From: Gordius sp. MW1
Lineage: Eukaryota; Nematomorpha; Gordioida; Gordea; Gordiidae
Length of the DNA: 64,000 bases
Assembly (NCBI GenBank): GCA_964036665.1
Contig: OZ038526.1
Location: 6,014,001 to 6,078,000, forward strand
Direction: 5' to 3'
The notes below the pieces were generated by a model, which had not been told where the DNA came from, searched no databases, and saw only the letters and a program-made list of their open reading frames with translations. Position numbers and translations under genes: made by a program. Positions 7,113-59,507 of this stretch are shown here, piece after piece (the first letter of the stretch is position 1; each line of letters opens with the position of its first letter).

Positions 7113-9075
7113 ATTAATTGCTATGCAATTTATGGGCTCGTTTTTTGGTTGTCCGTTGTCCGTTGTCCGTTACCCTCCCTATCTATTTGCATTGGTTATA
7201 TTAGGTTATCGATTTTTTAAATTAATGCATGAGAAAGAGGTGCCCCACCCCTCATCTCTATCTCCCTCGCTGTGTTATTTTTTAAATTAATGCATAAGAG
7301 GTGCCCCACCCCTCATCTTTATCTCCCTCGCTTTCGGGCGGGGTCGGGTTTTAATTGCTACGTTAAATTAATGCATAAGTATATCTATTCGTTTTTGAAT
7401 TGGGTAACATTGATATTAATTGCTATAATTACCCTATGCCCTCCACTACAAGGGTTTGGGTTAGAATCTCGGAGTCTTTTTAGACTCTTATGATTGTTCT
7501 TGTTACTACCATTGATAATAAGACTTCTTGGCCGTCTGCTGGCTGCTAACCAATGAAAAAAATGACCATTGGCCAAAATGTGAATCCAAGTTTATTTTTT
7601 CTTTGACTATTATGATTGTTCCTGTTACTACCATTGCTAATACGACTTTTCGGCCGTCCACTGGCTGCTGACCAAAGAAAAAATGACCATTGGCCAAAAT
7701 GTGAATCCAAGTTTATTTTTTCGTTTTTTTTGACTATTATGATTGTTCCTGTTACTACCATTGCTATTATGACTTTTTGGCCGTCTGCTGGCTGCTGACC
7801 AATGAAAAAAATGACCATTGGCCAAAATGTGAATCCAAGTTTATTTTTTCGTTTTTTTTTATTATTATGATTGTTCCTGTTACTACCATTGCTATTATGA
7901 CTTTTTGGCCGTCCGCTGGCTGCTGACCGATGGAAAAAATGACCATTGGCCAAAATGTGATTCCAAGTTTTTTTTTCGTTTTAGTTTTGACTATTACGAT
8001 TGTTCTTGTTACTATCATTGATAATAAGACTTTCTGGCCGTCCGCTGGCTGCTGACCAATGAAAAAAATGACCATTGGCCAAAATGTGAATCCGAGTTTA
8101 TTTTTTCGTTTTTTTTGACTATTATGATTATTCCTGTTACTAACATTGCTATTATGACTTTTTGGCTGTCCGCTGGCTCCTGACCGATGGAAAAAATGAC
8201 CATTGGCCAAAATGTGAATCGAAATTATTTTTTTCGTTTTTTTTTGACTATTATGATTGTTCCTGTTCCTACCATTGCTATTATGACTTTTGGCCGTCCG
8301 CTGGCTGCTGACCAATGGAATAAAATGACCATTGGCCAAAATGTGATTCGAAAATTTTTTTTTCCTTTTTTTGACTATTATGAATTTATATCCACTTTTA
8401 CCGTGTCCTGGCTGCTGACCAATAAAATAAAATGACCATTGGCCAAAATGTGATTCGAAAATTTTTTTTCGTTTTTTTACTCTTATGAATTTATTTCCAT
8501 TTTTACCGTGTGCTGGCTGCTGACCGATGGAAAAAAATGACCATTGGCCAAAGTGAGCATCAAATTTTTTTTCCCGTTTTTTTGGCTACCATTGACTTAT
8601 AGAGTATCTGTTGGTACTGACCAATGGAGAAAAAATGACCATTCGCCAAATTTTTGATTTTTTTAATTAAAAATTGTTCAAATTCAACAAAAATTTCTCC
8701 CTACAATTCTGCAAATTCTTAACATTGTGATGTTTTATAATATAATGTTTGTTAGACCCATAATCACTAAAGGCCGTAAAAACTAATGTAATACGCAACT
8801 AGATGCAAACATTAAATCTAACCCTAACCCTTGCCTATATTACATTTTGCCTATAAATGGAAAATTTGTATAAATAATTAATTATTCATTAGGCATTAAA
8901 TACCCCCCTATAGGCATTCTCGCCCCTTCCCACCTTTCTCGCCCATAAATTGCATAGCAAATATGATACATTTATACGAAGTAAAGATGAGTCGTCCCCC
9001 CTTCCCTTCCCCCCTTCTTCCCTCCCCTTCTCCCCTCCCCCTTCCCACGAGGGCCGAAGGCCCGAGTTTTTGTTT
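7113..9075 (+). repeat. Minisatellite-bearing repeat (HINE/DINE-like), copy 1
   Basis: The 5' part starts with AATTGCTATGCAATT and TTTATGGGCTCG. A central array of about eight to nine units of roughly 128 bp follows (about 7490-8650), each with a TGACCATTGGCCAAAATGTG core. The 3' part carries GCCCATAAATTGCATAGCAA near 8940, the inverse of the 5' start, then a C/T-rich tract and a terminal hairpin GGGCCGAAGGCCC at 9051-9063 followed by a T run. Subterminal inverted repeats, internal tandem repeats and a 3' hairpin resemble the Helentron-derived HINE/DINE-1 class; assignment to that class is inference. Three other copies occur in the window. Confidence 0.6.
9051..9063. repeat. Terminal GAA-triloop hairpin of repeat copy 1
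   Basis: GGGCC-GAA-GGCCC forms a 5-bp GC stem closed by C-G over a GAA loop. It is the last structured element before the T run that ends the repeat. Confidence 0.7.
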
Positions 9076-10145: not shown

Positions 10146-10606
10146 CATAGACTACATAGACTGCTCATCACGGTATAAAATGTGTGTGTTTTTTTCCGCC
10201 ATTTTGATGAACACTACCGTCCTATATCACATAATGGCGTTTTGCCCTCTGCCGTTTTTCTCGAACAGGAGAGGTAAAGAAAAAAGGTTTTGATTCCATA
10301 AATAAGGAAGATATTACTAAATATATGATATTTTTAAAAATTTTCAATATCATTACAGTTTCTACATTTTTAATTTTTATGAAATGTTTCAATAATAAAT
10401 TTTTTAAAAATATCATATATTTAGTAATATCTTACTTATTTATGGAATTAAAACTTTTTTTCTTTACCTCCCCTGTTCGAAAAAAACGGCACAGCGCAAA
10501 ACGCCATTATGTGATATAGGACGGTAGTGTTCATCAAAATGGAGGCAAATTTCACACACAATTTGCCATATGGAATATATGACATGAGCAGTCTATGTAG
10601 TCTATG
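10146..10606. mobile_element. 461-bp palindromic MITE with 8-bp target duplication
   Basis: The element begins CATAGACTACATAGACTGCT and ends with the exact inverse; 23 bp match perfectly at the tips. Identical 8-bp GCAACAAT flanks lie at 10138-10145 and 10607-10614. The inverted similarity continues inward almost to the middle (for example CACTACCGTCC at about 10211 against GGACGGTAGTG at about 10521, and the AAATATCATATATTTAGTAA words), so nearly the whole element folds on itself. CA-starting tips and an 8-bp duplication fit the hAT or P superfamilies. It encodes no transposase. Confidence 0.85.
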
Positions 10607-12267: not shown

Positions 12268-23277
<11,010 letters not shown>

Positions 23278-26053: not shown

Positions 26054-39425
<13,372 letters not shown>

Positions 39426-44800: not shown

Positions 44801-47800
44801 AATTTGAACATTAGTTAATGTACAAAAAAAGCATGAATGATTATGATAATTAAGAAAGATTAGCGTGTGGCGGGTATACCTCGTAAGTTGTGTGGCCGGG
44901 GTAGTCGTCGTGATCGATTGGGACGGAGAGGGGGGAAGGGAAATGGAGCGTTGACAGGTCTGGCAGTGAGCCCGTATTATTACCCAAGGCTAATGATTGA
45001 GCTTCGTGTTCGGGCAACGGGCAGGGATTTGTAGCTGTTACACTAATACGCACAAGCACAAATTATAACATGTCGCGTCACATTCAACCTCTAAAATCGT
45101 TCATATCTAATTATAAGTATATACTATTTTTTGTTTCACCGATGTTAATACTTATTTCATGAAACAACATTTTTAAACGTGTTTTGTCATATTAGTTAGA
45201 ATATTCGTGTACTTGATGCCGGGAACTTCGCACGATCTGGGCCGATCCGAATCACTTTCATTTGATGCTGCTGGGTCGTGCAAGTTTTGTTGCTACAGCC
45301 AAAAATGGTAAATAGTGTATAAACGTGCTAATGCAAAATGAGTGGTGAGGATAGTGTTATAACGCAATTCATCAGCATAATCAGGCAACGGTTTAAGTTC
45401 GGTTTAATTAAAAACTATGTTACAAATTTACTGGTCCGATTACACAACACAATATAACACCTATAATCACATTTTGCACTGCATTGCATAGTAAAGCATA
45501 GTGTTGTAAAACGACTGAGTTTTGCAAGGCCAACTTTTGGTTTTAGTCGACTAAACATAAACGGACAAAAGATTTGACCAAAAAATCTTTGGTTTGTTTA
45601 TACGATTAAGAAAAACATACCAAAAAAACGTTTGGCCTGTTAATATGTAGTCGACTAAAACTAAAGGTTGACCAAACAAAACCCAGCCGTTTTTACAACA
45701 CTAGTAAAGCAATTAAGCAACGTATAGTTGGAAAAACAGCGGAGGCACACCTTTAATTTGTTAAGATAAATGTGAGACATGCACAATTTCAGCATATCAG
45801 AAGAGGAGGAAGAAGCTGCTAAATGGTGATGGGTGTTGGATTGTTTGGCATTGTTAACTAATCCCACGGGACCGGCAGCCTTAAATTGAGCCAAGGGGGC
45901 CCGATCCGAAAAGCCGTTTTGGTTAGGTAGGGCGGCCGCTACGTGCCTAAGCATGCAACCCGTGGAATTGTATCGCGGGGGCGGGAACGATCTATCTTTA
46001 CGTTTTCGAATCAGACAGCCCTGCACATCGATCGGTCGAGACAACACACACACCACATGCACAGCATGAAAACAAACGAAATACGTACGTAACATACAAA
46101 AACAACACACATATAGGTAAGATATATTAGATGGATCAAATTAGTATATATATGCAATTTCAAAGATAATTTTATAATGTTATATATATTATATTTCGTC
46201 GGATGCAACTTACGTGAGTGGTTTTGCTTGGCCATCCATTGCGCGATTCCAAGGCTTCAGGGGTAGTGTTGTAATGGTAGTCCCCTACCCAAAAAATCAA
46301 CATTACAAATTGAGAAAAAAAATATATGACATTTTAGCTAACTTTTCAATTTCATAATAAAAAGTTATGAAAAAACATTAAAATCTGAGCAATTGACTAA
46401 ACTCACCATTTATGGGATTAAGGGTGGTGGGGGATGCAGCCCAATTGTGGTGCATGGGTGAGGGGATTTTTAAGGAATTGCTATGTAGGGCAGGGGGTGA
46501 AGGAGAGAGCGAGGCGCCATGATTATTACCCTGAGCGTGACCATTGACAGCAGATGATTGGTGGAGGGCGGAATCGGAGTTAGTCCTAGGGGTATGAAAG
46601 ATGCATTAATAATCTCACAACAATCCAAAAAAAATGCCAGAGTTAGCTGGGGGGTGACCGCCCCCCCCCCTAAATGACAAAAAATTTAGGTTTTGCCCCC
46701 CCCCCCAATTGAATTTAAAACGATTTCGCCCCCCCCTCTTAATCCAAAACCTGGCTACGCCCATGATGTGACGTGATGACACATGGTCGCATGATGATGA
46801 AAAAAATTACCACCAATCACATAGTCGCTCAACTTAATTCCCGCGTAAGCCGTGCCAAAATATTAAAACGACTAAGCGGCACGTGAAAGTTCGAGACCTT
46901 AGTTCTAGCTATATTCGAAATGTCGTTCAACACCCCCTTCCCCTCTGACCGACGCCACTCCACAATTTTAAAGATGCTCATGAATGAGGCGACAGTTGTT
47001 AGGCAAAAACTTTTCCCGATACGTCCCCCCTCGCGACGTGCGTGAGCGAATGATGGAGTGGCAATTAAGGGTTGTAAAAATTAAAACAAATACCCTCCTA
47101 CCCTACCTTACCACCTTTGCACATTCGAAGAAAAATAAAATATGTGAGACACGAAATGATGCGACAATAAATTTTTCGGCTAAAAGTTGACAATTTGCAT
47201 ATCGTACCTGCGCCAGTGAGCTTCGGGGGACGGAGGAGATAGGTAAGGTGACGCGTACGGACTGCAATCGACCTATCGAGATGAAAGCAAAGCGACACAT
47301 AAAAAGGACGTAAAATTTTACTACTAAAAGGTTGCCCCCTTCTTCACTCAAATTATATACATAACATATATATAAATCATTTCGCGCATCGCAATAAAGC
47401 TTTTTTGTTCACGGCCTTAAACATATAATGTTGTACCCTTGTTGGCGCCTTTCGACTTTCGTTGTGCGAAGAACGGGCTCGGGAGCCCTTGGACAAGCTA
47501 GTGCCCCGCGAACGGGGCTCAGCTTTGGGTCGGCCTTGCTTCATGTCGTTCAATGTATTAAGCGCACCCTAATATAGATTTGGATCGGGCTGGTTAAAGG
47601 CGTAAAATTAATTATTAAGTTTAAGAAATATGTTAAAGCAGTGTCCTAATTCTGCTGGCTCAAAATACTTCACCCTAATAATAATAATTTAATTTATCAA
47701 CATTTTAGGAAAAGCTGATTCTTTCTCCCGTGCAGAAATCAAAAAAAATAGGTAGGAAAACTCCGTGAAACTTGAGATTCAACTTTTTTTTGATAAAATG

Positions 47801-50800
47801 AATGCTCTACCTGGAGATCGATGTGGGCCTGAAGAATTTCGTGTGGTCGACTGACCATCATCTCTAAAGGGCTAACGTTTGGCAAAGAGCCCCCGTAGAA
47901 TGCCGCATTGTTACCTTGCACCGATTGAGATCCGTAACGCGGACCCGGGGGTTTTAGAGTGTGGGCCTGTGTGTGGTGTCCGTAACCTTGCATCTTTCGA
48001 TCGCTTATTTGGGGGAACGCTTGATAGGGTGCTTGGTCACTTCCCTTAACAAATGATGTATGGCATGCAATTAATTGAGGCGACGTTTAATGACCTCTTT
48101 TAAAAACTTATCACGACAAAATGGATTAGATGGGTCTTAGTGACCCCCCCCCCCCCCCAAAAAAAAAAAAGTAATGGAAAGTTTAGAAATGGAATATGGA
48201 GACGGCCTCAAAGACCGTACGATGGAATTTAAACATAGGCATCGAGGTTATAAGCAAAATAGACGAGCAAATAATCCTAGTTCAAGATGCAAAATGCATA
48301 ACGCCAATGATTAAAAAATTAAATAAACGCCTTTACCATTTGTGTGTTCAGGTGTGTTTTTAACCGGTGATAATTTAAATTTCAAACATAAAATAACCCG
48401 TTTGTAAATATATAAGTTAAAAATAAGCAAAATCTTGAAAAACCAATAAAATTATATATTAAATGGATTAAACATGCCTACCCAACGGTAATTAGATTTT
48501 TTACCATTAATCAATTAAAAGCACAATTAAAAAAATTGATTATATTTAATTATACCCCAACACGCCAAATATAGTATTTAACCAAAATTCCGCTTAAATC
48601 GCTAGTAGTTGTAGTCGTAAAGTTTATAAATATTTCTAAAAATGGGAGCTATTTTTTGTTATAAATTTTAGCATGGTCCATTAAATTAAATCCGATTTTA
48701 ATAAATAGAGAGTTTGGAGTTTTGTAAGACGGGTCGGCGTGGCTTAGAAAATTAAATATGGCACATGGAGTGCTTGACATGAATAATTTTGGTAAATCGG
48801 AAACACTATACCAAAAACTAAGTGCCCTAATCAAAAAATAAGGCTTCGTTTACTATAATTTAAATTAAAACTTCACAAAGGTACATTAAAACAAACGATG
48901 TCTTTAGATGTGTAAAAGATTATTTTGTAAATGTAAGTAACCGAAGTGACGATCTAGAAAACCGTAGGCTCGGGCCAGGTTCTTATAAACATATAAAGTT
49001 GCAAAGGAAATATTCAACAAAGGGTGGCGGTACGTACATAAACTTATACGTAGTACCATGGGCGTAGCCGGCATTGGTATTAGAGGGGGGGGCAAAAATG
49101 ATTTATGGAGGGGCAAAATGATCATTTTTTTTAAATATTTTAGCCATATGTTTAATAATTTTCAACAAATTTTTAGATTTAGAGGAGGGCAGCCACCCCT
49201 CCTTGCCCCCTCCCCCCTCGGCTACGCCCATGAGTAGTACCACCTTTGGGAGTTATGACGTTTCAAAATGGTATTGTCTAATAGTCTCTCTCTCTACCCC
49301 CGCTTACGTCTCAAACCCACTCACAAACCCTTTCTACTCCCTTATATGTCATTCAGTTCAAACACGACGCAGCGAGTGACGAATATAATGTATTAAGGTG
49401 CAACTAAATTTTCTTTGTCCCGCGCTCGACATAAGATCCTGTTCGCGAAACCACCAACCATTTAACCCATCTTACCGTACCCCGACCACGTATTTCGTCT
49501 CGACTTATGCTCAACACCCCCCCCCCTATGCTGTCACGCCATGGCACAGAAACGAATAAACTTTAAAGGCGTCCTCGTGTGACGAATGTGAAAGCGTTAA
49601 AGCTTCTTTAATCTACACATATATATACTAAAAAAAGGTATTGGCCAAACCCTGTACGAGTTCTTCAATCAGCTGGTTGGCCCACCACACATAAAGAATG
49701 AACTGGGATTGGGGGCTTAGATATATTGAATTGTCTCAAAGAATATAAACACCAATATAAATAAATTATACGATGTGGGCCCGAAGGAATGCTTGCCTAA
49801 CCTAACCTCGATCCAAAAGTCTATTCAAGCGCGAGACGGGCTCACACTTATTGAAACAGCGCGGTCTAGGCTTGGACCAAGAAAATGGAGATAGACGCCG
49901 TTTCACCATCGATAGTTGTTACTATACCATGGCAAAAGAGGGCCGGCCGGCCAGCCGGTCAAATATGGGCTGCGAAGAAGTTTAAAAACGTTGCTAGAAA
50001 AAGAACGTAATGTTTTCCCACCACCTTCCACCAACCTTATACAGGCTCTGCGCAATTCAATATCCCCGGTAAAGCAACTTAGAAACAAAAAAAGTGGAAG
50101 TGAAAACAGAGGGGGAAATGTTCCCTTGCGTCTTGCTCTCCCCCATTCTACGCCGGTGACGCGAAGGGGGAAAACCCGCATAGTTTTACGAGAGTGGTTA
50201 AATTCGCGTGCTACTGAAGTGTTGACTCCGTGAATCATGCCCTTATAATGTTAAAGTGCGACTTGAAAGTTAAATTGTCAGTAAACTCAATATTATGTCA
50301 ATTTTAGATACTAGTTGACATGGGCGTAGCCAGTATTGGGATTAGGGGGGGCAATAATGATTTGGGGAGGGCAAAATGAACTTTTTTTTTGATTTCAGCC
50401 TTAATTTTAATAAATTTCAACAAATTTTTGGATTTAAAGGGGGGCAGCTGCCCCTTCTGTCCCCCCTTGGCTACGCCCATGCTAGTTAATATTATATAAG
50501 TGTTAGTTACATATGATGACCAGCTATAGTAATTGTAAAATTGCTTTAGAGAGCTAGTGTCCTAACAAAATATAATATGTATGAGCCGTTTTGTATAAAC
50601 AGGGAAACACAATTTTCCTCACCACTCTGCCGCGGAATAAATTATAAGAATTAATTGCGAGGGACAGGGAGCTAAATAAAATTAATATTTGGCATAAATT
50701 AAACTTTCCATGCTCTAGCTATAAGCCTCAGTTTCACGCTCGTGCGGTGTCATTATAAATCTATCGCTTAAATATCCTGGAATTTATTATCCAACGATAA

Positions 50801-53800: not shown

Positions 53801-56800
53801 CTTAGTCGTCCCCTCCCCCTTGATATATTTGATATATCTAATATATCAAATTTAGAGGATGCTGCGATGATGAGTGATGATAGTTAGCTTTATAATAGCA
53901 GTTGGAAGAGTGAGTAGAAAGGTACCGTCCTACTTCAGTAATGACCTCGGGGATATACCCGAGAAAAAAATAGATTTTGACTCGCCTTGAACACCTACCT
54001 AGCTTCCTTTAAATTGGTTCGAAATCAAGGGGGGGGGCTCGGTAAAAAACGAATCGCGCATTTTAAGTTATTGTGAAAATCAAAAAGTCAACAAAACTTT
54101 ACCACATCTATTGTTAACGTGTTTTTAAAAGGTTTTTTTCGCTTCCCTTTAAATTATGCTTGGTTTAATATATACGAGGCAGGGAAAATATAGGATACTC
54201 GACACGCTTACCCCCCCCCTAATTTAATTATTTATTTTATGATTGCCATCTCCGCTGAACAAACAAAAAAGCTACGTTCATCAGCTACATCCACATTGCG
54301 ACATTATAAATAGGAGTCGGAGAGGGAGGTGGAGGCGGGACGGGGCACCTCATTGTGGGTGAACCCAAAAAATAAACTCGAACCAACGAGATCGGTCCTA
54401 GCCTTAGGGCCTGACCGCTTTCTTAAGGTTCATCCGAAGGTCATTCGTCGTTTTTTTTGCACATCTAGAACGCGCAGAAAGATGGGGGATGGATGACTAA
54501 CTCGTTTTTCAAAAGTCGCGTCGTGTCCGCTGAGGTCGATCCCCAGTGTCAGACTGTCATCACTTTGCAAGGGGGCGCGTGAGGTGGGGAAGTGATGATG
54601 AACTGAGCAAAACTGCTAATTTTTGACAAATTTAGAGGGCCGGCTTTAAGGTGATATTAGTTATTGATGTTCGTTGTTCCGAAGGTTATCTAGGATTTTA
54701 ATTTAGCCAAAAAGGGGGGGGGGAGGAGAATGTTCAGTTTTGATTCAGGGGGCGACAAAATTATGACTTTTCAAAATTGCTCCTTTCCCAGATAGGTCCT
54801 GGCCATGTTTATATTTTGTGGGGGGGGGGGGGGGCGTAGTTGTATAAGCTTTGTCTTTGAACAAGAGCACGCGGGTTTAACGGTGGAAAATATATCACAT
54901 CGTCAACACGGCTGTCTGGCCTGGATAGCGGAGCCTCACCTCTCATGAAAATATCGAAAGAAGCTGACCACCTCAGTGTGACAAACAGCTATTGGAGGGC
55001 AGAGAATGACTACATCGAGGGTTAAGGTAGTCAGGGGATATTCAAGGTTACGTGGGGCATCGGGCAAATTGGGCAAGGTTGGCAAAATGCAAGAAAATAA
55101 TATAATAAACGATTCAAAATAAAAAAAGTAAATGAAAGGTTAAGAAAAAGGCATAAAAAACTCCTTTCATTCTCCCCCACAACCCTGCTTCCCATAAAAA
55201 TTAGCTTGTTTAATACTATAGAGTATAAAGTAATATTGAGCAATTAATTATGTGTAAAAAAACTTAATTCCGTCTTAAACCTGTGTACAGGAATTGAATT
55301 GGAGCATAGCCCCCTCCTCCTTTCCACCTTTCACAAAAACATTACATCATTGAAGTGATTAAATGAAGTGGTCTTGTCCCCATTTCAATGGGGAGAAAAG
55401 GAGTAAAGGTTAATAACAACAAAATAGGTAAATAATAAGATAGATAAGAACATGTAGTACTTGCACTCTCTATGGCCAAAAGTGAAACGTACTATTTGAT
55501 AACATCTGAATCCCAGGTTAAAATTAGATACATTACTATTATTTTTGGTATTATTCTGATATAATAAAGATCGTACCCAAAAGTGAATATATTCACTTTT
55601 GGGTACGATCTTTATTATATATCACTCAAATTCTTATACAGACGATAATAGTAATCAGAATAATACCAAAAATAATACGCCTACCGATTTACAACATGTT
55701 TTTACGAGGGGAATTAATTAATTCTTCTTTTTGAGTTGCTTTGACATATTTCCCACTACAACATTCTCACCTAAATCACTCCCGTTTAAGCTACTCATAA
55801 ATTCTTTAAATTTGCTTCTAGAATTGTTTAACTCCACTATAGACTCCATGGCAGTATTGCCCGTTATGTTGTCAATACTACTTAGTATCTCACTCACTCT
55901 TAAATCCATTTTTCCCAACTGACACACTATAATCTGTACTATTAAACGCTATCCCGTTAGCGTCTGGAATGAAGCATATACTCACAACCATTAAATAATA
56001 TAGCAACATTTTGTAAAATATGCTATTTTTCGGTCCAACTCTAAACTTTTCTTTATCCACTTCTCGTCTTTTCTTTCTAATATTTATGTGTTCCAAGTTC
56101 ACGTCTAGCTCACATCTCTTTGTTGTAACTCTCATCCTTCGTTGTTTTTGACTTCTATCTATTTTAGCAATTTCTTCATTTCTGTTGCATACACCAACCC
56201 CAAAATGATTCTTTTTAATGTCTATATTCTTCCTCCAACAGAAAGAACCTTCTGCAACCTTTTCAAATATGTTAGGATTCTTTTTATACCAATTATTTAC
56301 TTTTTCAGCATTTGGCACTCTATTTACACGTTTTCTCTCCGATATACCTAGTGTTGATGGTTTTAAACTAGAATTTAGCTTAGTTTCCGTCTTTATGAAT
56401 TTATACAAACTCCCTTCTCCATTCCATTTAGATGCAATCATTTTAAACTCTGGATGCACATTCCTTATTTTTCTTTTCTTAATTTTCTCCAACTCAATCC
56501 TTTCATTTAATTCTTTCTCTACACTTACCGTTAATGGTTCTGAATCAGAACTTATTTTGGCTTCCGTTTTTATAAACTTATACAAACTTCCTCTTCCACT
56601 CCACTTTGATGCAATCTTTTTAAAAGTTGGATGTATACTGTCTATCTTCCTTTTCCTAATCTCTTCTTACTTCATTTTTCCACTAAGTTCTTCCATAGCG
56701 ACCTTTTCTTTACACCACTTTACCTTCCCATGTAACTTCTCAACATTAACTCTCTCACTATCCTTCAACAACTCTCTTAGATCAGGTTGTGGTTCAGTAA

Positions 56801-59507
56801 CCATTAGAGACCAACATTTCCTTTCAACCATTTTATTTGATCCAACTTCTCTTATATTCAACTTTGTGTCTCTAAATCTACCATCAGATAGCCCAGTGAA
56901 TTGATAGACTAACCACATCACAGCTTCATCTGCGACGTCATCATCCTCAATACATGTGTAACGTTTTATGTAATCGCTAGCATTGGTTAGTATCGATCTT
57001 AAACTGTAGCCTGCCGCCACATCTCTCAACATATCATAGAACGCAAACAGCATATCCCTGTTTCTTGGCATCTCCACCAACCCTTGAAATAACATGGTTT
57101 GTGCCTTATCCTTAAGATGCCCATTTTTACAATTACTAACTTTTATATTACAAATTTTTTCGACACTTTTGAACACGCCCATTAGGACATGTCTAGGTAC
57201 ATTACTCAGTAACATACCTATTGGGAGTCTTCCCGTAAATTTCACCAACTCCCCTTTTCCATCGGCTGACGAACCAGCCTGTTCAGCATTTTAAGATCGA
57301 TACTAACCAATGCTAGCGATTACATAAAACGTTACACATGTATTGAGGATGATGACGTCGCAGATGAAGCTGTGATGTGGTTAGTCTATCAATTCACTGG
57401 GCTATCTGATGGTAGATTTAGAGACACAAAGTTGAATATAAGAGAAGTTGGATCAAATAAAATGGTTGAAAAGAAATGTTGGTCTCTAATGGTTACTGAA
57501 CCACAACCTGATCTAAGAGAGTTGTTGAAGGATAGTGAGAGAGTTAATGTTGAGAAGTTACATGGGAAGGTAAAGTGGTGTAAAGAAAAGGTCGCTATGG
57601 AAGAACTTAGTGGAAAAATGAAGTTAGAAGAGATTAGGAAAAGGAAGATAGACAGTATACATCCAACTTTTAAAAAGATTGCATCAAAGTGGAGTGGAAG
57701 AGGAAGTTTGTATAAGTTTATAAAAACGGAAGCCAAAATAAGTTCTGATTCAGAACCATTAACGGTAAGTGTAGAGAAAGAATTAAATGAAAGGATTGAG
57801 TTGGAGAAAATTAAGAAAAGAAAAATAAGGAATGTGCATCCAGAGTTTAAAATGATTGCATCTAAATGGAATGGAGAAGGGAGTTTGTATAAATTCATAA
57901 AGACGGAAACTAAGCTAAATTCTAGTTTAAAACCATCAACACTAGGTATATCGGAGAGAAAACGTGTAAATAGAGTGCCAAATGCTGAAAAAGTAAATAA
58001 TTGGTATAAAAAGAATTCTAACATATTTGAAAAGGTTGCAGAAGGTTCTTTCTGTTGGAGGAAGAATATAGACATTAAAAAGAATCATTTTGGGGTTGGT
58101 GTATGCAACAGAAATGAAGAAATTGCTAAAATAGATAGAAGTCAAAAACAACGAAGGATGAGAGTTACAACAAAGAGATGTGAGCTAGACGTGAACTTGG
58201 AACACATAAATATTAGAAAGAAAAGACGAGAAGTGGATAAAGAAAAGTTTAGAGTTGGACCGAAAAATAGCACATTTTACAAAATGTTGCTATATTATTT
58301 AATGGTTGTGAGTATATGCTTCATTCCAGACGCTAACGGGATAGCGTTTAATAGTACAGATTATAGTGTGAGTCAGTTGGGAAAAATGGATTTAAGAGTG
58401 AGTGAGATACTAAGTAGTATTGACAACATAACGGGCAATACTGCCATGGAGTCTATAGTGGAGTTAAACAATTCTAGAAGCAAATTTAAAGAATTTATGA
58501 GTAGCTTAAACAGGAGTGATTTAGGTGAGAATGTTGTAGTGGGAAATATGTCAAAGCAACTCAAAAAGAAGAATTAATTAATTCCCCTCGTAAAAACATG
58601 TTGTAAATCGGTAGGCGTATTATTTTTGGTATTATTCTGATTACTATTATCGTCTGTATAAGAATTTGAGTGATATATAATAAAGATCGTACCCAAAAGT
58701 GAATAGTCAACGTGTAGTAAATTGGATACTTAATATTTACTAATTCAGAAATTACATGGAATGTCATAGCAAAGTATCTTGCATGATTTAACCTATAGAA
58801 ATCTAATTTGCATTCTAATGTGAAAAAATCCTAGAAATTTACCCAAATTATAAGCAAAAATAAGCTAACGCACTTTTGCATAATTATAGAATGATGTTTA
58901 TACAGATACTGCATAAAAATATTATTTAAGCAAAAGGCTACCAAATGAAATATTAATTTTTAAAGCTCAGAATGACAAGGGCAAAATTTATGGCAATCCA
59001 CTTGTTAATGAGCACACTAAAATTGCAGCTGCTTTGCAAAGTTTTGATTCCACTATCAGTAACACAAGTAACAGGATGGTGGTAAAACAGAGTTTTAAAT
59101 TTAAACAATGCCATAACAAACAATTATAGATAAAAAATTGGCTATAAAAATTTATAAGGGTCTATAGGCTTGGTATATATCTTTAATTATTTATTTGTTT
59201 GAACTTTAAAGTAAAATTGTATTTATTATTTGTATAATTTTAGTGGTATTTTTGTATCAAATATAAAAACGATTTGTTGTTAAACCAAACTGCAGCAAAC
59301 TATTTAAAAGCTACAACTCAGAATTCATGCAGCATATTTAGTAAGTCAATAAAATATTTATAATTCAAAAATTTATCAGGTAATATTGATTCTTACCCTA
59401 GTGGCGTATCCAACTTCTTTCATAATTTGCTCAAAGGCTGCCGTTTCTTCAGCTTGTTTTTGTGTGTGCAAAGCAATTTTTTCACTAAATTTTCTTGGGG
59501 TAGCCAT
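41655..59507 (-). CDS. CRTC: CREB-regulated transcription coactivator (complete gene model)
   Basis: Fourteen exons join in frame (3336 nt, 1111 aa): 59507-59397, 48044-47811, 47568-47437, 47272-47208, 46585-46407, 46284-46214, 46020-45751, 45292-45213, 45042-44880, 44468-44103, 43814-43677, 43625-43437, 43066-41896, 41821-41655. The N-terminus [20 protein letters not shown] is the CREB-binding coiled-coil domain. YGGSLPNV (87-94), [17 protein letters not shown] (SIK/14-3-3 site, about S184), [11 protein letters not shown] (second phosphosite, about S374) and NNTGSLPDL...HFPSPL (402-417) appear in the same order as in vertebrate CRTCs. A basic stretch at 749-764 may be a nuclear signal. The C-terminal IPHIILTG (1050-1057) is the conserved start of the activation domain. 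CRTC enters the nucleus on cAMP/Ca2+ signalling and recruits transcription machinery to CREB. It is longer than the 600-700 aa of vertebrate paralogues, mostly through low-complexity Gln/Ser/Asn stretches. Confidence 0.95.
41896..43066 (-). CDS. CRTC: CRTC exon 13 (large, activation domain)
   Basis: Acceptor GATGAAG|CAC is weak (no strong pyrimidine tract) but keeps phase; donor AACCG|GTATAT. It codes residues 667-1056, including the basic 749-764 stretch, a Gln/His/Tyr run, and SIPHIILT at the end. Confidence 0.88.
43437..43625 (-). CDS. CRTC: CRTC exon 12
   Basis: Acceptor TTATACAG|TTC and donor ACTTCG|GTATCT, both phase 0. It codes [14 protein letters not shown] to SVSPTS. Confidence 0.82.
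43677..43814 (-). CDS. CRTC: CRTC exon 11
   Basis: Acceptor GTCCTTAG|TCC and donor TCGAGT|GTAAGT, both phase 0. It codes a Tyr/Asn/Pro-rich stretch. Confidence 0.8.
44103..44468 (-). CDS. CRTC: CRTC exon 10
   Basis: Acceptor CCCCTAG|TCT and donor GTCCAG|GTGAGT, both phase 0. 122 residues, Ser/Gln/Tyr-rich, start [16 protein letters not shown]. Confidence 0.85.
44661..44788. mobile_element. 128-bp TA-flanked MITE in CRTC intron 9
   Basis: It opens GTGTCGTAAAAACGGCTGGG and closes with the near-inverse ending CCGTTTTTACAACAC. Both sides are flanked by TA, the target duplication typical of the Tc1/mariner superfamily. No coding capacity. Confidence 0.75.
44880..45042 (-). CDS. CRTC: CRTC exon 9: SLPDL motif
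   Basis: Acceptor CGTATTAG|T completes the Asn of PGIN and donor [30 protein letters not shown] corresponds to a conserved regulatory block of CRTC1/2. Confidence 0.92.
45213..45292 (-). CDS. CRTC: CRTC exon 8: SCEVPGI motif
   Basis: Acceptor GGCTGTAG|CAA and donor [22 protein letters not shown] matches the second SIK/MARK-type site of vertebrate CRTC2. The exon is only 80 bases. Confidence 0.92.
45501..45701. mobile_element. 201-bp TA-flanked MITE in CRTC intron 7
   Basis: Same family as 44661-44788: GTGTTGTAAAACGACTGAG at one end, CAGCCGTTTTTACAACAC at the other, flanked by TA. The interior is longer and contains TAGTCGACTAAA words and a second inner fold. Confidence 0.75.
45751..46020 (-). 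CDS. CRTC: CRTC exon 7
   Basis: Acceptor GATGTGCAG|GGC and donor TTAAAG|GTGTGC, both phase 0. It codes [20 protein letters not shown] onward, 90 residues. The C-terminal [15 protein letters not shown] is unlike other CRTCs, so the donor could be misplaced or alternative. Confidence 0.72.
46214..46284 (-). CDS. CRTC: CRTC exon 6
   Basis: Acceptor TTGGGTAG|GG and donor ACTCAC|GTAAGT. It codes [20 protein letters not shown], short and basic. Confidence 0.8.
46407..46585 (-). CDS. CRTC: CRTC exon 5: SIK/14-3-3 site
   Basis: Acceptor ACCCCTAG|G and donor [21 protein letters not shown] is nearly identical to the inhibitory phosphosite of vertebrate CRTCs; the arginine before it is split across the intron. 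Confidence 0.95.
46645..46765. mobile_element. GGGCGTAGCCAG-family MITE fragment in CRTC intron 4
   Basis: Its right tip CCTGGCTACGCCCATG is complete; the left part is a C-run-rich segment without a clear tip. Confidence 0.6.
47208..47272 (-). CDS. CRTC: CRTC exon 4
   Basis: Acceptor TCTCGATAG|GTC and donor [31 protein letters not shown] aligns with the SCPYGTMYLSPP region of human CRTC1. A nearby AG (GATTGCAG) would break the phase, so the upstream one is chosen. Confidence 0.9.
47437..47568 (-). CDS. CRTC: CRTC exon 3
   Basis: Acceptor ATTAG|GGT and donor ACAAGG|GTACAA, both phase 0. [13 protein letters not shown] start, then Arg/Ser-rich. Confidence 0.85.
47811..48044 (-). CDS. CRTC: CRTC exon 2: YGGSLPNV motif
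   Basis: Acceptor TTGTTAAG|GGA and donor CTCCAG|GTAGAG, both phase 0. It contains [13 protein letters not shown], a CRTC signature. Confidence 0.92.
49057..49232. mobile_element. GGGCGTAGCCAG-family MITE
   Basis: CATGGGCGTAGCCGGCATTG start, GGCTACGCCCATG end. CGTAGTAC before and AGTAGTAC after match at 7 of 8 bases when one trailing base is allowed. Confidence 0.75.
50319..50481. mobile_element. GGGCGTAGCCAG-family MITE
   Basis: CATGGGCGTAGCCAGTATTG start, TTGGCTACGCCCATG end. Flanks CTAGTTGA and CTAGTTAA match at 7 of 8 bases. Confidence 0.8.
51634..51799. mobile_element. GGGCGTAGCCAG-family MITE, left tip shortened
   Basis: CATGGGTAGCATTGG start has lost a few bases of the tip; CCTGGCTACGCCCATG end is intact. 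No clean target duplication. Confidence 0.65.
53260..53413. mobile_element. GGGCGTAGCCAG-family MITE with perfect 8-bp target duplication
   Basis: AATGGGCGTAGCCAGCATTG start, CGGCTACGCCCATG end. TGGCATGT lies at 53252-53259 and again at 53414-53421. Confidence 0.85.
53828..53850. repeat. 10-bp-stem hairpin
   Basis: TTTGATATAT and ATATATCAAA around a CTA loop, inside CRTC intron 1. Confidence 0.6.
55538..55589 (+). repeat. Truncated extra end of the palindrome element
   Basis: It matches the distal end of the right arm (58620-58705) in direct orientation, with about 35 internal bases deleted, and abuts the left arm tip to tip at GTGAATA|TATTCAC. Confidence 0.75.
55718..57248 (-). pseudogene. 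Left-arm copy of the unknown ORF, broken
   Basis: Starting in the spacer ([17 protein letters not shown]), the frame runs outward into the left arm. A TAA at about 56669 (TTA in the right arm) stops it after ELSGKMK, and a 2-bp deletion near 55928 shifts the frame after DYSVS. The spacer-coded N-terminal part (about 80 residues) is present only on this side, because the right arm begins partway into the gene. The full-length ancestor therefore had a longer N-terminus than the right-arm copy retains. Function unknown. Confidence 0.75.
57372..58577 (+). CDS. Right-arm ORF: unknown basic protein with internal repeat and hydrophobic segment
   Basis: 401 codons open from [11 protein letters not shown] to QLKKKN-stop; the frame is open upstream to about 57297 without an ATG. 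The middle contains two similar blocks of about 60 residues, each with KRKI-type basic residues, HPxFKxIASKW and [10 protein letters not shown] (first near 90-120, second near 145-175). A very basic region (about 230-290) is followed by a hydrophobic segment [18 protein letters not shown], then a short Asn/Ser-rich tail. This suggests a membrane-anchored or membrane-passing protein with a charged N-terminal side. I recognise no family. The N-terminus is missing relative to the left-arm copy, so this may be a truncated gene kept open by youth, not selection. Confidence 0.6.
   Translation: MMWLVYQFTGLSDGRFRDTKLNIREVGSNKMVEKKCWSLMVTEPQPDLRELLKDSERVNVEKLHGKVKWCKEKVAMEELSGKMKLEEIRKRKIDSIHPTFKKIASKWSGRGSLYKFIKTEAKISSDSEPLTVSVEKELNERIELEKIKKRKIRNVHPEFKMIASKWNGEGSLYKFIKTETKLNSSLKPSTLGISERKRVNRVPNAEKVNNWYKKNSNIFEKVAEGSFCWRKNIDIKKNHFGVGVCNRNEEIAKIDRSQKQRRMRVTTKRCELDVNLEHINIRKKRREVDKEKFRVGPKNSTFYKMLLYYLMVVSICFIPDANGIAFNSTDYSVSQLGKMDLRVSEILSSIDNITGNTAMESIVELNNSRSKFKEFMSSLNRSDLGENVVVGNMSKQLKKKN
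59397..59507 (-). CDS. CRTC: CRTC exon 1: CREB-binding domain
   Basis: [20 protein letters not shown] then [17 protein letters not shown], donor ACTAGG|GTAAGA, phase 0. It is almost identical to the N-terminus of animal CRTCs, which forms the coiled coil contacting the CREB bZIP. Confidence 0.97.

What the first reader, a model, noticed from the sequence alone, without database searches (positions are those of the whole stretch)
55590..58705. 1.4-kb-arm palindrome carrying an unknown gene inside CRTC intron 1
Two inverted arms of 1414 and 1416 bp flank a 286-bp spacer; I read only about six differences. Each arm encodes the same protein, which I cannot place in any family, and there is no recognisable transposase, RT or capsid. 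It may be a new foldback-type element, or a duplicated fragment of a larger element whose tips read TATTCACTTTTGGGTACGAT. Its place in an intron means CRTC pre-mRNA could fold into a long perfect dsRNA, a natural substrate for Dicer-2 or ADAR.
Basis: partly seen in the sequence, partly recalled or inferred. Interest (0 to 1): 0.8.

Follow-up and report, generated by a model that had tools for sequence, protein, structure and literature searches.

The report
Hairpin retrotransposon copy carrying captured gene
In an intron of an insect gene sits a hairpin-shaped DNA copy, apparently made when a retrotransposon's copying enzyme jumped onto a foreign messenger RNA and then copied its own product back; the captured gene is unknown, was once under selection, and has no other intact source that could be found in this genome.

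Summary
The palindrome is real. Its arms, 55590-57003 and 57290-58705, differ by five substitutions and one 2-nt indel. It lies in CRTC intron 1. It is not a foldback transposon. The outer 133 bp of each arm is the inner part (R, inferred) of the LTR of a Ty3/gypsy family. That LTR has at least 40 matches elsewhere, 22 of them in direct pairs, with gypsy pol inside some pairs. The right end runs on through U5 to the exact LTR end (58735). The unknown gene joins at the base where conservation among 41 family LTR tails jumps, taken as the U3/R border, where minus-strand strong-stop DNA changes template. Best reading: gypsy reverse transcriptase jumped from its own cap site onto another RNA, and the chimeric cDNA was folded back into a palindrome. 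The gene has one other home found in the genome, C6, 56% identical, also joined to a gypsy element within an inverted duplication. dN is far below a saturated dS, so it was a real protein gene. A third gypsy-associated palindrome (C3) sits inside an LTR element with a perfect target duplication. The gene's origin (RNA virus or lost retroelement ORF) and any dsRNA role are untested.

The parts
55532..55536 (.). possible left target-site duplication ATTAC (right counterpart TTTAC, 58736-58740; 4 of 5 match)
   Evidence: 4 of 5 or better has a chance of about 1.6% at a fixed place (my arithmetic), so equivocal
55537..55589 (+). fragment of the gypsy-family LTR (L012 LTR positions 308-331 and 365-395, 33 nt missing between), abutting the left arm tail-to-tail
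55590..55722 (-). R region (inferred) of the LTR at the left tip; carries AATAAA in CRTC-sense orientation (55616-55611)
55723..57289 (-). left copy of the captured gene, one nonsense codon and one 2-nt frameshift relative to the right copy
57004..57289 (-). spacer = N-terminal continuation of the captured gene, present only in the left copy
57287..57292 (.). fold-back junction; two gene copies meet head to head, with a few shared T/A bases
   Evidence: microhomology read by eye, not tested
57290..58572 (+). right copy of the captured gene (open; stop codon supplied by the R region)
58573..58705 (+). R region (inferred) of the LTR; begins where family conservation jumps, ends 21 nt after AATAAA (58679-58684)
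58706..58735 (+). U5 (inferred), ending at the exact LTR end
59397..59507 (-). CRTC exon 1 (host gene containing the insertion)
   Evidence: recognised by recalled motifs

Best explanation
It is a chimeric, palindromic retro-cDNA. A Ty3/gypsy reverse transcriptase started a minus strand at its tRNA primer site and copied U5 and R to the cap of its own RNA. There, instead of moving to its own 3' end, it moved onto another RNA and copied at least 1.57 kb of it. The new strand was then folded back and copied again, giving two inverted copies of gene plus R with a one-sided loop. The product was inserted into CRTC intron 1 with its U5 end intact and its other end damaged and joined to a scrap of LTR. 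Shown: family LTR identity, the join at the conservation border, the exact LTR end on the right, the palindrome anatomy, no other match to the gene in the genome but C6, past purifying selection on the gene. Inferred: that the border is the cap site, the order of steps, that the fold-back occurred during reverse transcription rather than after insertion, and that the donor RNA was foreign (viral or from a lost retroelement). It probably has no present function beyond making intron 1 able to form a long hairpin.
For: LTR family with direct pairs, 5-bp duplications, PBS and pol. The gene joins at 58573, exactly where per-column entropy over 41 LTR tails falls from a mean of 0.92 bit (15 columns before) to 0.04 (15 after), the last column before being the most variable of the upstream part (1.91); the bases just before it come in 19 versions in 38 copies. 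The right end is the exact LTR end. C6 locus: a relative of the same gene (56% identical) is fused to another gypsy family, with a 123-nt LTR piece that starts 3 nt before a TATA-spaced initiator (motifs recalled), and is inverted-duplicated. C3 locus: a 3.3-kb-arm palindrome lies inside an LTR element with a perfect ATTAT duplication, so a palindromic gypsy-type insert can be part of an integrated unit. Papers: capture of mRNA by LTR elements through template switching is described in PMC5408686 (passages); Ty3_gypsy enrichment beside viral integrations in Aedes in PMC5497376 (passages).
Against: The left tip does not look like a clean product: a simple self-primed hairpin should carry U5 on both ends, but the left end stops inside the LTR and abuts an LTR scrap. 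The target duplication is only 4 of 5. The 41 tails were chosen by similarity to R-U5, which exaggerates the contrast with U3, and other stretches of U3 farther upstream have six-column means as high or higher (1.1-1.3 bits). An early sign that foreign U3s were joined at the same base turned out wrong. The C3 inner part may have come in after the LTR element. No expression or read data were available.
Confidence: 0.7

Rival explanations
1. DNA-level inverted duplication: a single chimeric gene-R-U5 insertion was inverted-duplicated later by replication fold-back or break-induced replication in the host.
For: The outer fragment and U5 (55537-55589 and 58706-58735) flank the palindrome in register, as if it sat inside one LTR.
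Against: The tips fall 21 nt after AATAAA, as expected for an RNA end; two more gypsy-associated inverted duplications in the genome (C6, C3), one within a TSD-flanked element.
Confidence: 0.22
2. The gene is an ORF (Gag-like or Env-like) of a gypsy lineage now otherwise absent from the genome, so the insert is a deletion-type recombinant of a retroelement rather than capture of a foreign RNA.
For: Both homes of the gene are joined to gypsy sequences; the start of the C6 gene resembles the start of the family's short ORF1 in L017 (score 41, reached by 1 of 2000 shuffles); a signal/TM-like stretch near the C-terminus, read by eye.
Against: No other copy found in 211.8 Mb, although the short ORF1 of this kind of element gave 150 matches from 271 candidates, many of them weak; no Pfam gag, env or zinc-knuckle match; other stretches scored nearly as high in the same start-site comparison (up to 38).
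Confidence: 0.4
3. Foldback/TIR DNA transposon.
For: Long inverted arms with a spacer.
Against: Arm tips are LTR-internal, the whole arm was found at one locus, the exact tip-to-tip motif is unique; no transposase match.
Confidence: 0.02
4. Assembly artefact from a chimeric inverted read.
For: Such artefacts produce inverted repeats.
Against: Five substitutions, an indel, a one-sided spacer, different outer flanks, and two similar loci.
Confidence: 0.04
5. A functional hairpin-RNA locus: CRTC intron 1 makes dsRNA that is diced into small RNAs against the donor of the gene.
For: Near-perfect 1.4-kb arms in an intron; strong predicted fold of a piece across the loop.
Against: Low divergence can be youth alone; no small-RNA or expression data.
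Confidence: 0.08

Closest known systems
LTR-mediated retroposition (Tan et al. 2016: only the title, in the reference list of PMC8277862; not held; the model was read in passages of PMC5408686)
   Same: RNA sequence joined to LTR sequence by reverse-transcriptase template switching
   Different: join at the border of U3 and R, no U3 or second full LTR, product is a palindrome, donor gene not found in the genome
Non-retroviral viral integrations beside Ty3_gypsy elements in Aedes (PMC5497376, passages)
   Same: foreign-looking coding sequence next to gypsy elements, template switching suspected
   Different: no virus homologue found here; palindromic arrangement
Ty3/gypsy LTR retrotransposon (the family of L012-L019)
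   Same: R and U5 about 91-99% identical to the family
   Different: window copy lacks U3, PBS, pol and a second proper LTR
Foldback transposons (recalled, e.g. Drosophila FB)
   Same: long inverted arms
   Different: arm not found elsewhere, tips are LTR-internal
Drosophila hpRNA/esiRNA loci (recalled)
   Same: long inverted repeat in a transcribed region
   Different: no small-RNA evidence available

Membership tests
Foldback/TIR DNA transposon | same inverted-arm element at several sites | tested here: not met
   whole arm at one locus only; exact tail-to-tail tip motif only in the window
Foldback/TIR DNA transposon | transposase, or tips that are transposon ends | tested here: not met
   no transposase match in Pfam for the pieces given; tips are LTR-internal
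Ty3/gypsy LTR retrotransposon (source family) | paired direct LTRs, 5-bp duplication, PBS, pol | tested here: met
   8 direct pairs read: exact 5-bp duplication at an independently placed LTR start in 3 of 8 (L012, L013, L019); L016 and L014 have a candidate that chance could give; none found in L015, L017, L018. C3 element: ATTAT. PBS next to the LTR. RVP, RVT_1, RNase H, rve in L017
Ty3/gypsy LTR retrotransposon (the window copy) | U3-R-U5 at both ends | tested here: not met
   R-U5 on the right only; LTR scrap on the left
LTR-mediated retrocopy | captured sequence joined to LTR at a template-switch point | tested here: inconclusive
   join at the conservation border taken as U3/R; the cap site itself was not mapped
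LTR-mediated retrocopy | parental gene identifiable | tested here: not met
   no source gene found in the genome
Endogenous viral element | homology to a known virus | tested here: inconclusive
   no relative in IMG/VR (2 of 8 scans used), phage records, Pfam, PDB sequences; insect-virus databases not available; structure prediction never completed
hpRNA/siRNA locus | phased 21-22-nt small RNAs from the arms | not testable with these tools
   no reads available

The most novel reading that the evidence does not exclude
The captured gene comes from an undescribed RNA virus of the insect's lineage, taken up twice from different relatives by two gypsy families; in the window it was laid down directly as an inverted repeat inside a host intron, that is, a natural RNA-interference construct against that virus made in one step by a retrotransposon.
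Probability: 0.1. Interest if true: 0.85.

Novelty: new variant of a known kind. Interest (0 to 1): 0.48.

Why it matters
If the fold-back happens during reverse transcription, gypsy-type elements can deliver captured foreign genes as ready-made hairpins, a one-step path from RNA to a dsRNA-producing locus. Three inverted, chimeric gypsy-associated loci in one genome make that testable. The captured protein is also a lead to an undescribed virus or element.

Tried and rejected
Foldback transposon: rejected. Penelope-like pseudo-LTRs: considered, dropped when the repeats proved to be 425-bp LTRs with gypsy pol. First guess that the LTR was only 137 bp: wrong; the 137 bp is the inner part. Idea that L037, L049 and L052 carry foreign U3s joined at the same base: wrong; L037 and L049 are U3 variants of the family, and L052 holds an insertion of another repeat with about 19 bp duplicated. 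Gene as family Gag: a short start-site resemblance, not convincing. Weak Pfam hits (Arb2-like, Pox_A6, FAP206, Baculo_FP and others) are all under their cut-offs and taken as chance. CpG and TpA ratios did not separate gene from host. Paper searches listed no title on a palindromic LTR cDNA or a hairpin viral insertion of this kind; listings were read, and passages only of PMC8277862, PMC5497376, PMC5408686 and PMC11642819. Left unused: 6 of 8 viral scans and 4 of 12 genome searches, since two peptide-based scans had found nothing.

Full report
Observation. The inverted repeat is real: arms 55590-57003 and 57290-58705, five substitutions and one 2-nt indel between them, spacer 57004-57289. A whole-window scan for inverted repeats of at least 60 nt shows, besides it, one pair of 168 nt. 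It lies between CRTC exon 1 (59397-59507, minus strand) and CRTC-like exons at 47742-48086 and 46381-46605 (CRTC recognised from recalled motifs).

What the tips are. The outer part of the arm recurs in the genome (G000, 211.8 Mb in 12 contigs). One search lists 43 matches (40 of 56 candidates scored, so a lower bound): the two arms, the 31-nt scrap beside the left tip, and 40 others, none longer than 145 nt. Of these 40, 22 form 11 same-strand pairs 1.3 to 11.4 kb apart, 3 form a cluster with both orientations (C4, L021), and 15 stand alone. Inside pairs lie Ty3/gypsy-type protease, reverse transcriptase, RNase H and integrase (Pfam run on L017 only; L014 and L015 read alike), or a shorter derivative without them (L012, L013, L018, L019). 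The paired repeat is an LTR, 425 bp in L012, followed by TTGGCGCCCAACGT (a primer-binding site for tRNA-Lys, from recall) and preceded at the 3' copy by a polypurine tract. Of 8 pairs read, 3 have exact 5-bp duplications at an LTR start fixed independently by the direct repeat (L012 GTCTC, L013 GTCAC, L019 GTTAA). L016 and L014 have a candidate that chance could give (about 0.17 expected per locus by my arithmetic); L015, L017 and L018 have none. The C3 element has ATTAT.

Anatomy of the window copy in LTR coordinates (L012, 425 nt). Left scrap 55537-55589 = 308-331 plus 365-395; left tip 55590-55726 = 395 back to 259; right tip 58569-58705 = 259-395; 58706-58735 = 396-425, the exact LTR end. 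AATAAA is at 58679-58684, 21 nt before the tip at 58705. So position 395 fits the end of R, and the last 30 nt would be U5. In family tails the sequence runs on past position 395 (40 of 41 rows hold the U5 motif; the remaining row was not followed up); the window's left arm stops there.

Where the gene joins. Over 41 aligned tails, per-column entropy has a mean of 0.92 bit in the 15 columns before ATTAATTAATTCCCC and 0.04 in the 15 from it on; the last column before it (1.91) is the highest of the upstream part. The bases just upstream come in 19 versions among 38 copies; 3 further copies lacked the U3 motif used and proved to be two U3 variants and one copy with an insertion. Tails were chosen by their R-U5 likeness, so part of the contrast is selection of data, and stretches farther up in U3 are as variable in six-column means (1.1-1.3); the sharp position and the length variation are the stronger signs. 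The gene joins at exactly this base (58573). Its stop codon is supplied by the LTR, so its 3' end is probably cut. I read this as the point where minus-strand strong-stop DNA reaches the cap and changes template.

The gene. The right copy is an open frame of 435 codons (57270-58577; the first seven codons belong to the junction); the left copy is broken by one stop and one frameshift; the spacer extends the left copy towards the N-terminus. Features read by eye: a conserved N-terminal part, a tandem repeat around IASKWxGxGSLYxFIKTE, a basic stretch, and a signal or membrane-like segment near the C-terminus. No family matches above cut-off in Pfam or NCBIfam, no PDB sequence, no IMG/VR, GTDB-contig or phage relative. 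In the genome, matches were found only here and at C6: 6123228-6124041 and a second partial copy at 6125161-6125400. Between window and C6, dN is 0.34 and dS 2.8 in the N-part (128 codon pairs, pS 0.73, near saturation); in the C-part (150 pairs, ends not trimmed) pS is 0.82, so dS cannot be computed, and dN is 0.40. So the gene was long under purifying selection as a protein, and the two captured versions come from long-separated sources.

The C6 locus (L020, L068). A second gypsy family lies here. A 123-nt stretch of its LTR, L068 2359-2237, begins 3 nt before the A of TCAGT, which follows the first base of TATAAATAG by 26 nt (both motifs recalled). The same 123 nt are found again at L020 4585-4707, with the gene on one side and post-integrase sequence on the other, and the whole is inverted-duplicated (arms of 1673 and 1672 nt, 13 mismatches). 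Relative to the LTR the gene has the opposite orientation to the window case. If both events are reverse transcription, both strands of the donor RNA were copied, which would suit an RNA virus; but fold-back can also reverse a strand, so this is only a hint.

The C3 locus (L060, L061). Inverted arms of about 3.36 kb (3160 aligned columns with 8 mismatches and 30 gap positions, and a further 302 identical columns that overlap them by 101), with a spacer of about 970 nt, carry gypsy pol that differs from the family's (read by eye, no Pfam run) and further nested repeats. They lie inside an LTR element of about 11.8 kb whose LTRs are 99.3% identical and whose flanks carry a perfect ATTAT duplication. 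Palindromic gypsy inserts are thus not unique to the window. This is compatible with palindromes formed before integration, though later insertion of the inner part is not excluded.

Mechanism. Steps shown by anatomy: exact LTR end on the right; gene joined at the conservation border; second, inverted copy of gene and R; loop on one side. Steps inferred: strong-stop transfer to a foreign RNA; fold-back of the minus strand at a few shared bases near 57287-57292; second-strand synthesis to the end; insertion with a lost left U5 and an LTR scrap as filler. The left end is the weak point, since self-priming alone should leave U5 at both ends. Flanks ATTAC and TTTAC match at 4 of 5 bases, which is equivocal. 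With 5 substitutions in 1414 sites (0.35%) the insertion looks young, like the better-preserved LTR pairs (L013 100%, L012 and L019 99.8%, L017 99.6%; the other four 92.5-98.2%), unless gene conversion has kept the arms alike.

Consequences. Both R copies carry AATAAA; that of the left arm (55616-55611) is in CRTC sense and could end CRTC transcripts early. The intron RNA could form a duplex of about 1.4 kb; a 501-nt piece across the loop folds at -270.5 kcal/mol against a mean of -122.7 for 100 shuffles. No data on expression or small RNAs were at hand.

Verdict. Ordinary in its parts (gypsy LTR, template switching), unusual in the product. New variant of a known kind.

Noticed in passing
L017:999-1310 (+), L068:1381-1779 (-); 150 matches genome-wide from 271 candidates, many weak: Gypsy elements here carry a short ORF1 (roughly 100-147 aa) made of a hydrophobic segment plus CCHC zinc knuckle(s), with no recognisable capsid region before protease. 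Where the capsid comes from is unclear.
   Followed up: partly
C3:24079611-24091402 (L060, L061): LTR element holding a 3.3-kb-arm palindrome of another gypsy-like pol, with perfect 5-bp target duplication.
   Followed up: partly
C6:6121783-6130658 (L020, L068): Patchwork gypsy insertion: inverted arms, duplicated RT stretch, captured gene and an LTR piece that starts near a cap-like site.
   Followed up: partly
L021 (C4:23173700-23176200): Cluster of family LTR copies in both orientations with many nested direct and inverted repeats.
   Followed up: no
L052 (C5:4414270-4414940): Another repeat, also present in the window near 8.8, 16.3 and 38.4 kb, is inserted into a family LTR with about 19 bp duplicated.
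   Followed up: no
window 7144-9071, 14608-16521, 33897-38722: Related repeat clusters with internal tandem units of about 128 nt at three places in the window.
   Followed up: no
window 10177-10344 and 10397-10564: 168-nt inverted repeat, 92% complementary, 52-nt loop.
   Followed up: no
window 55616-55611 (-): AATAAA of the LTR lies in CRTC-sense orientation within intron 1, a possible premature poly(A) site.
   Followed up: no
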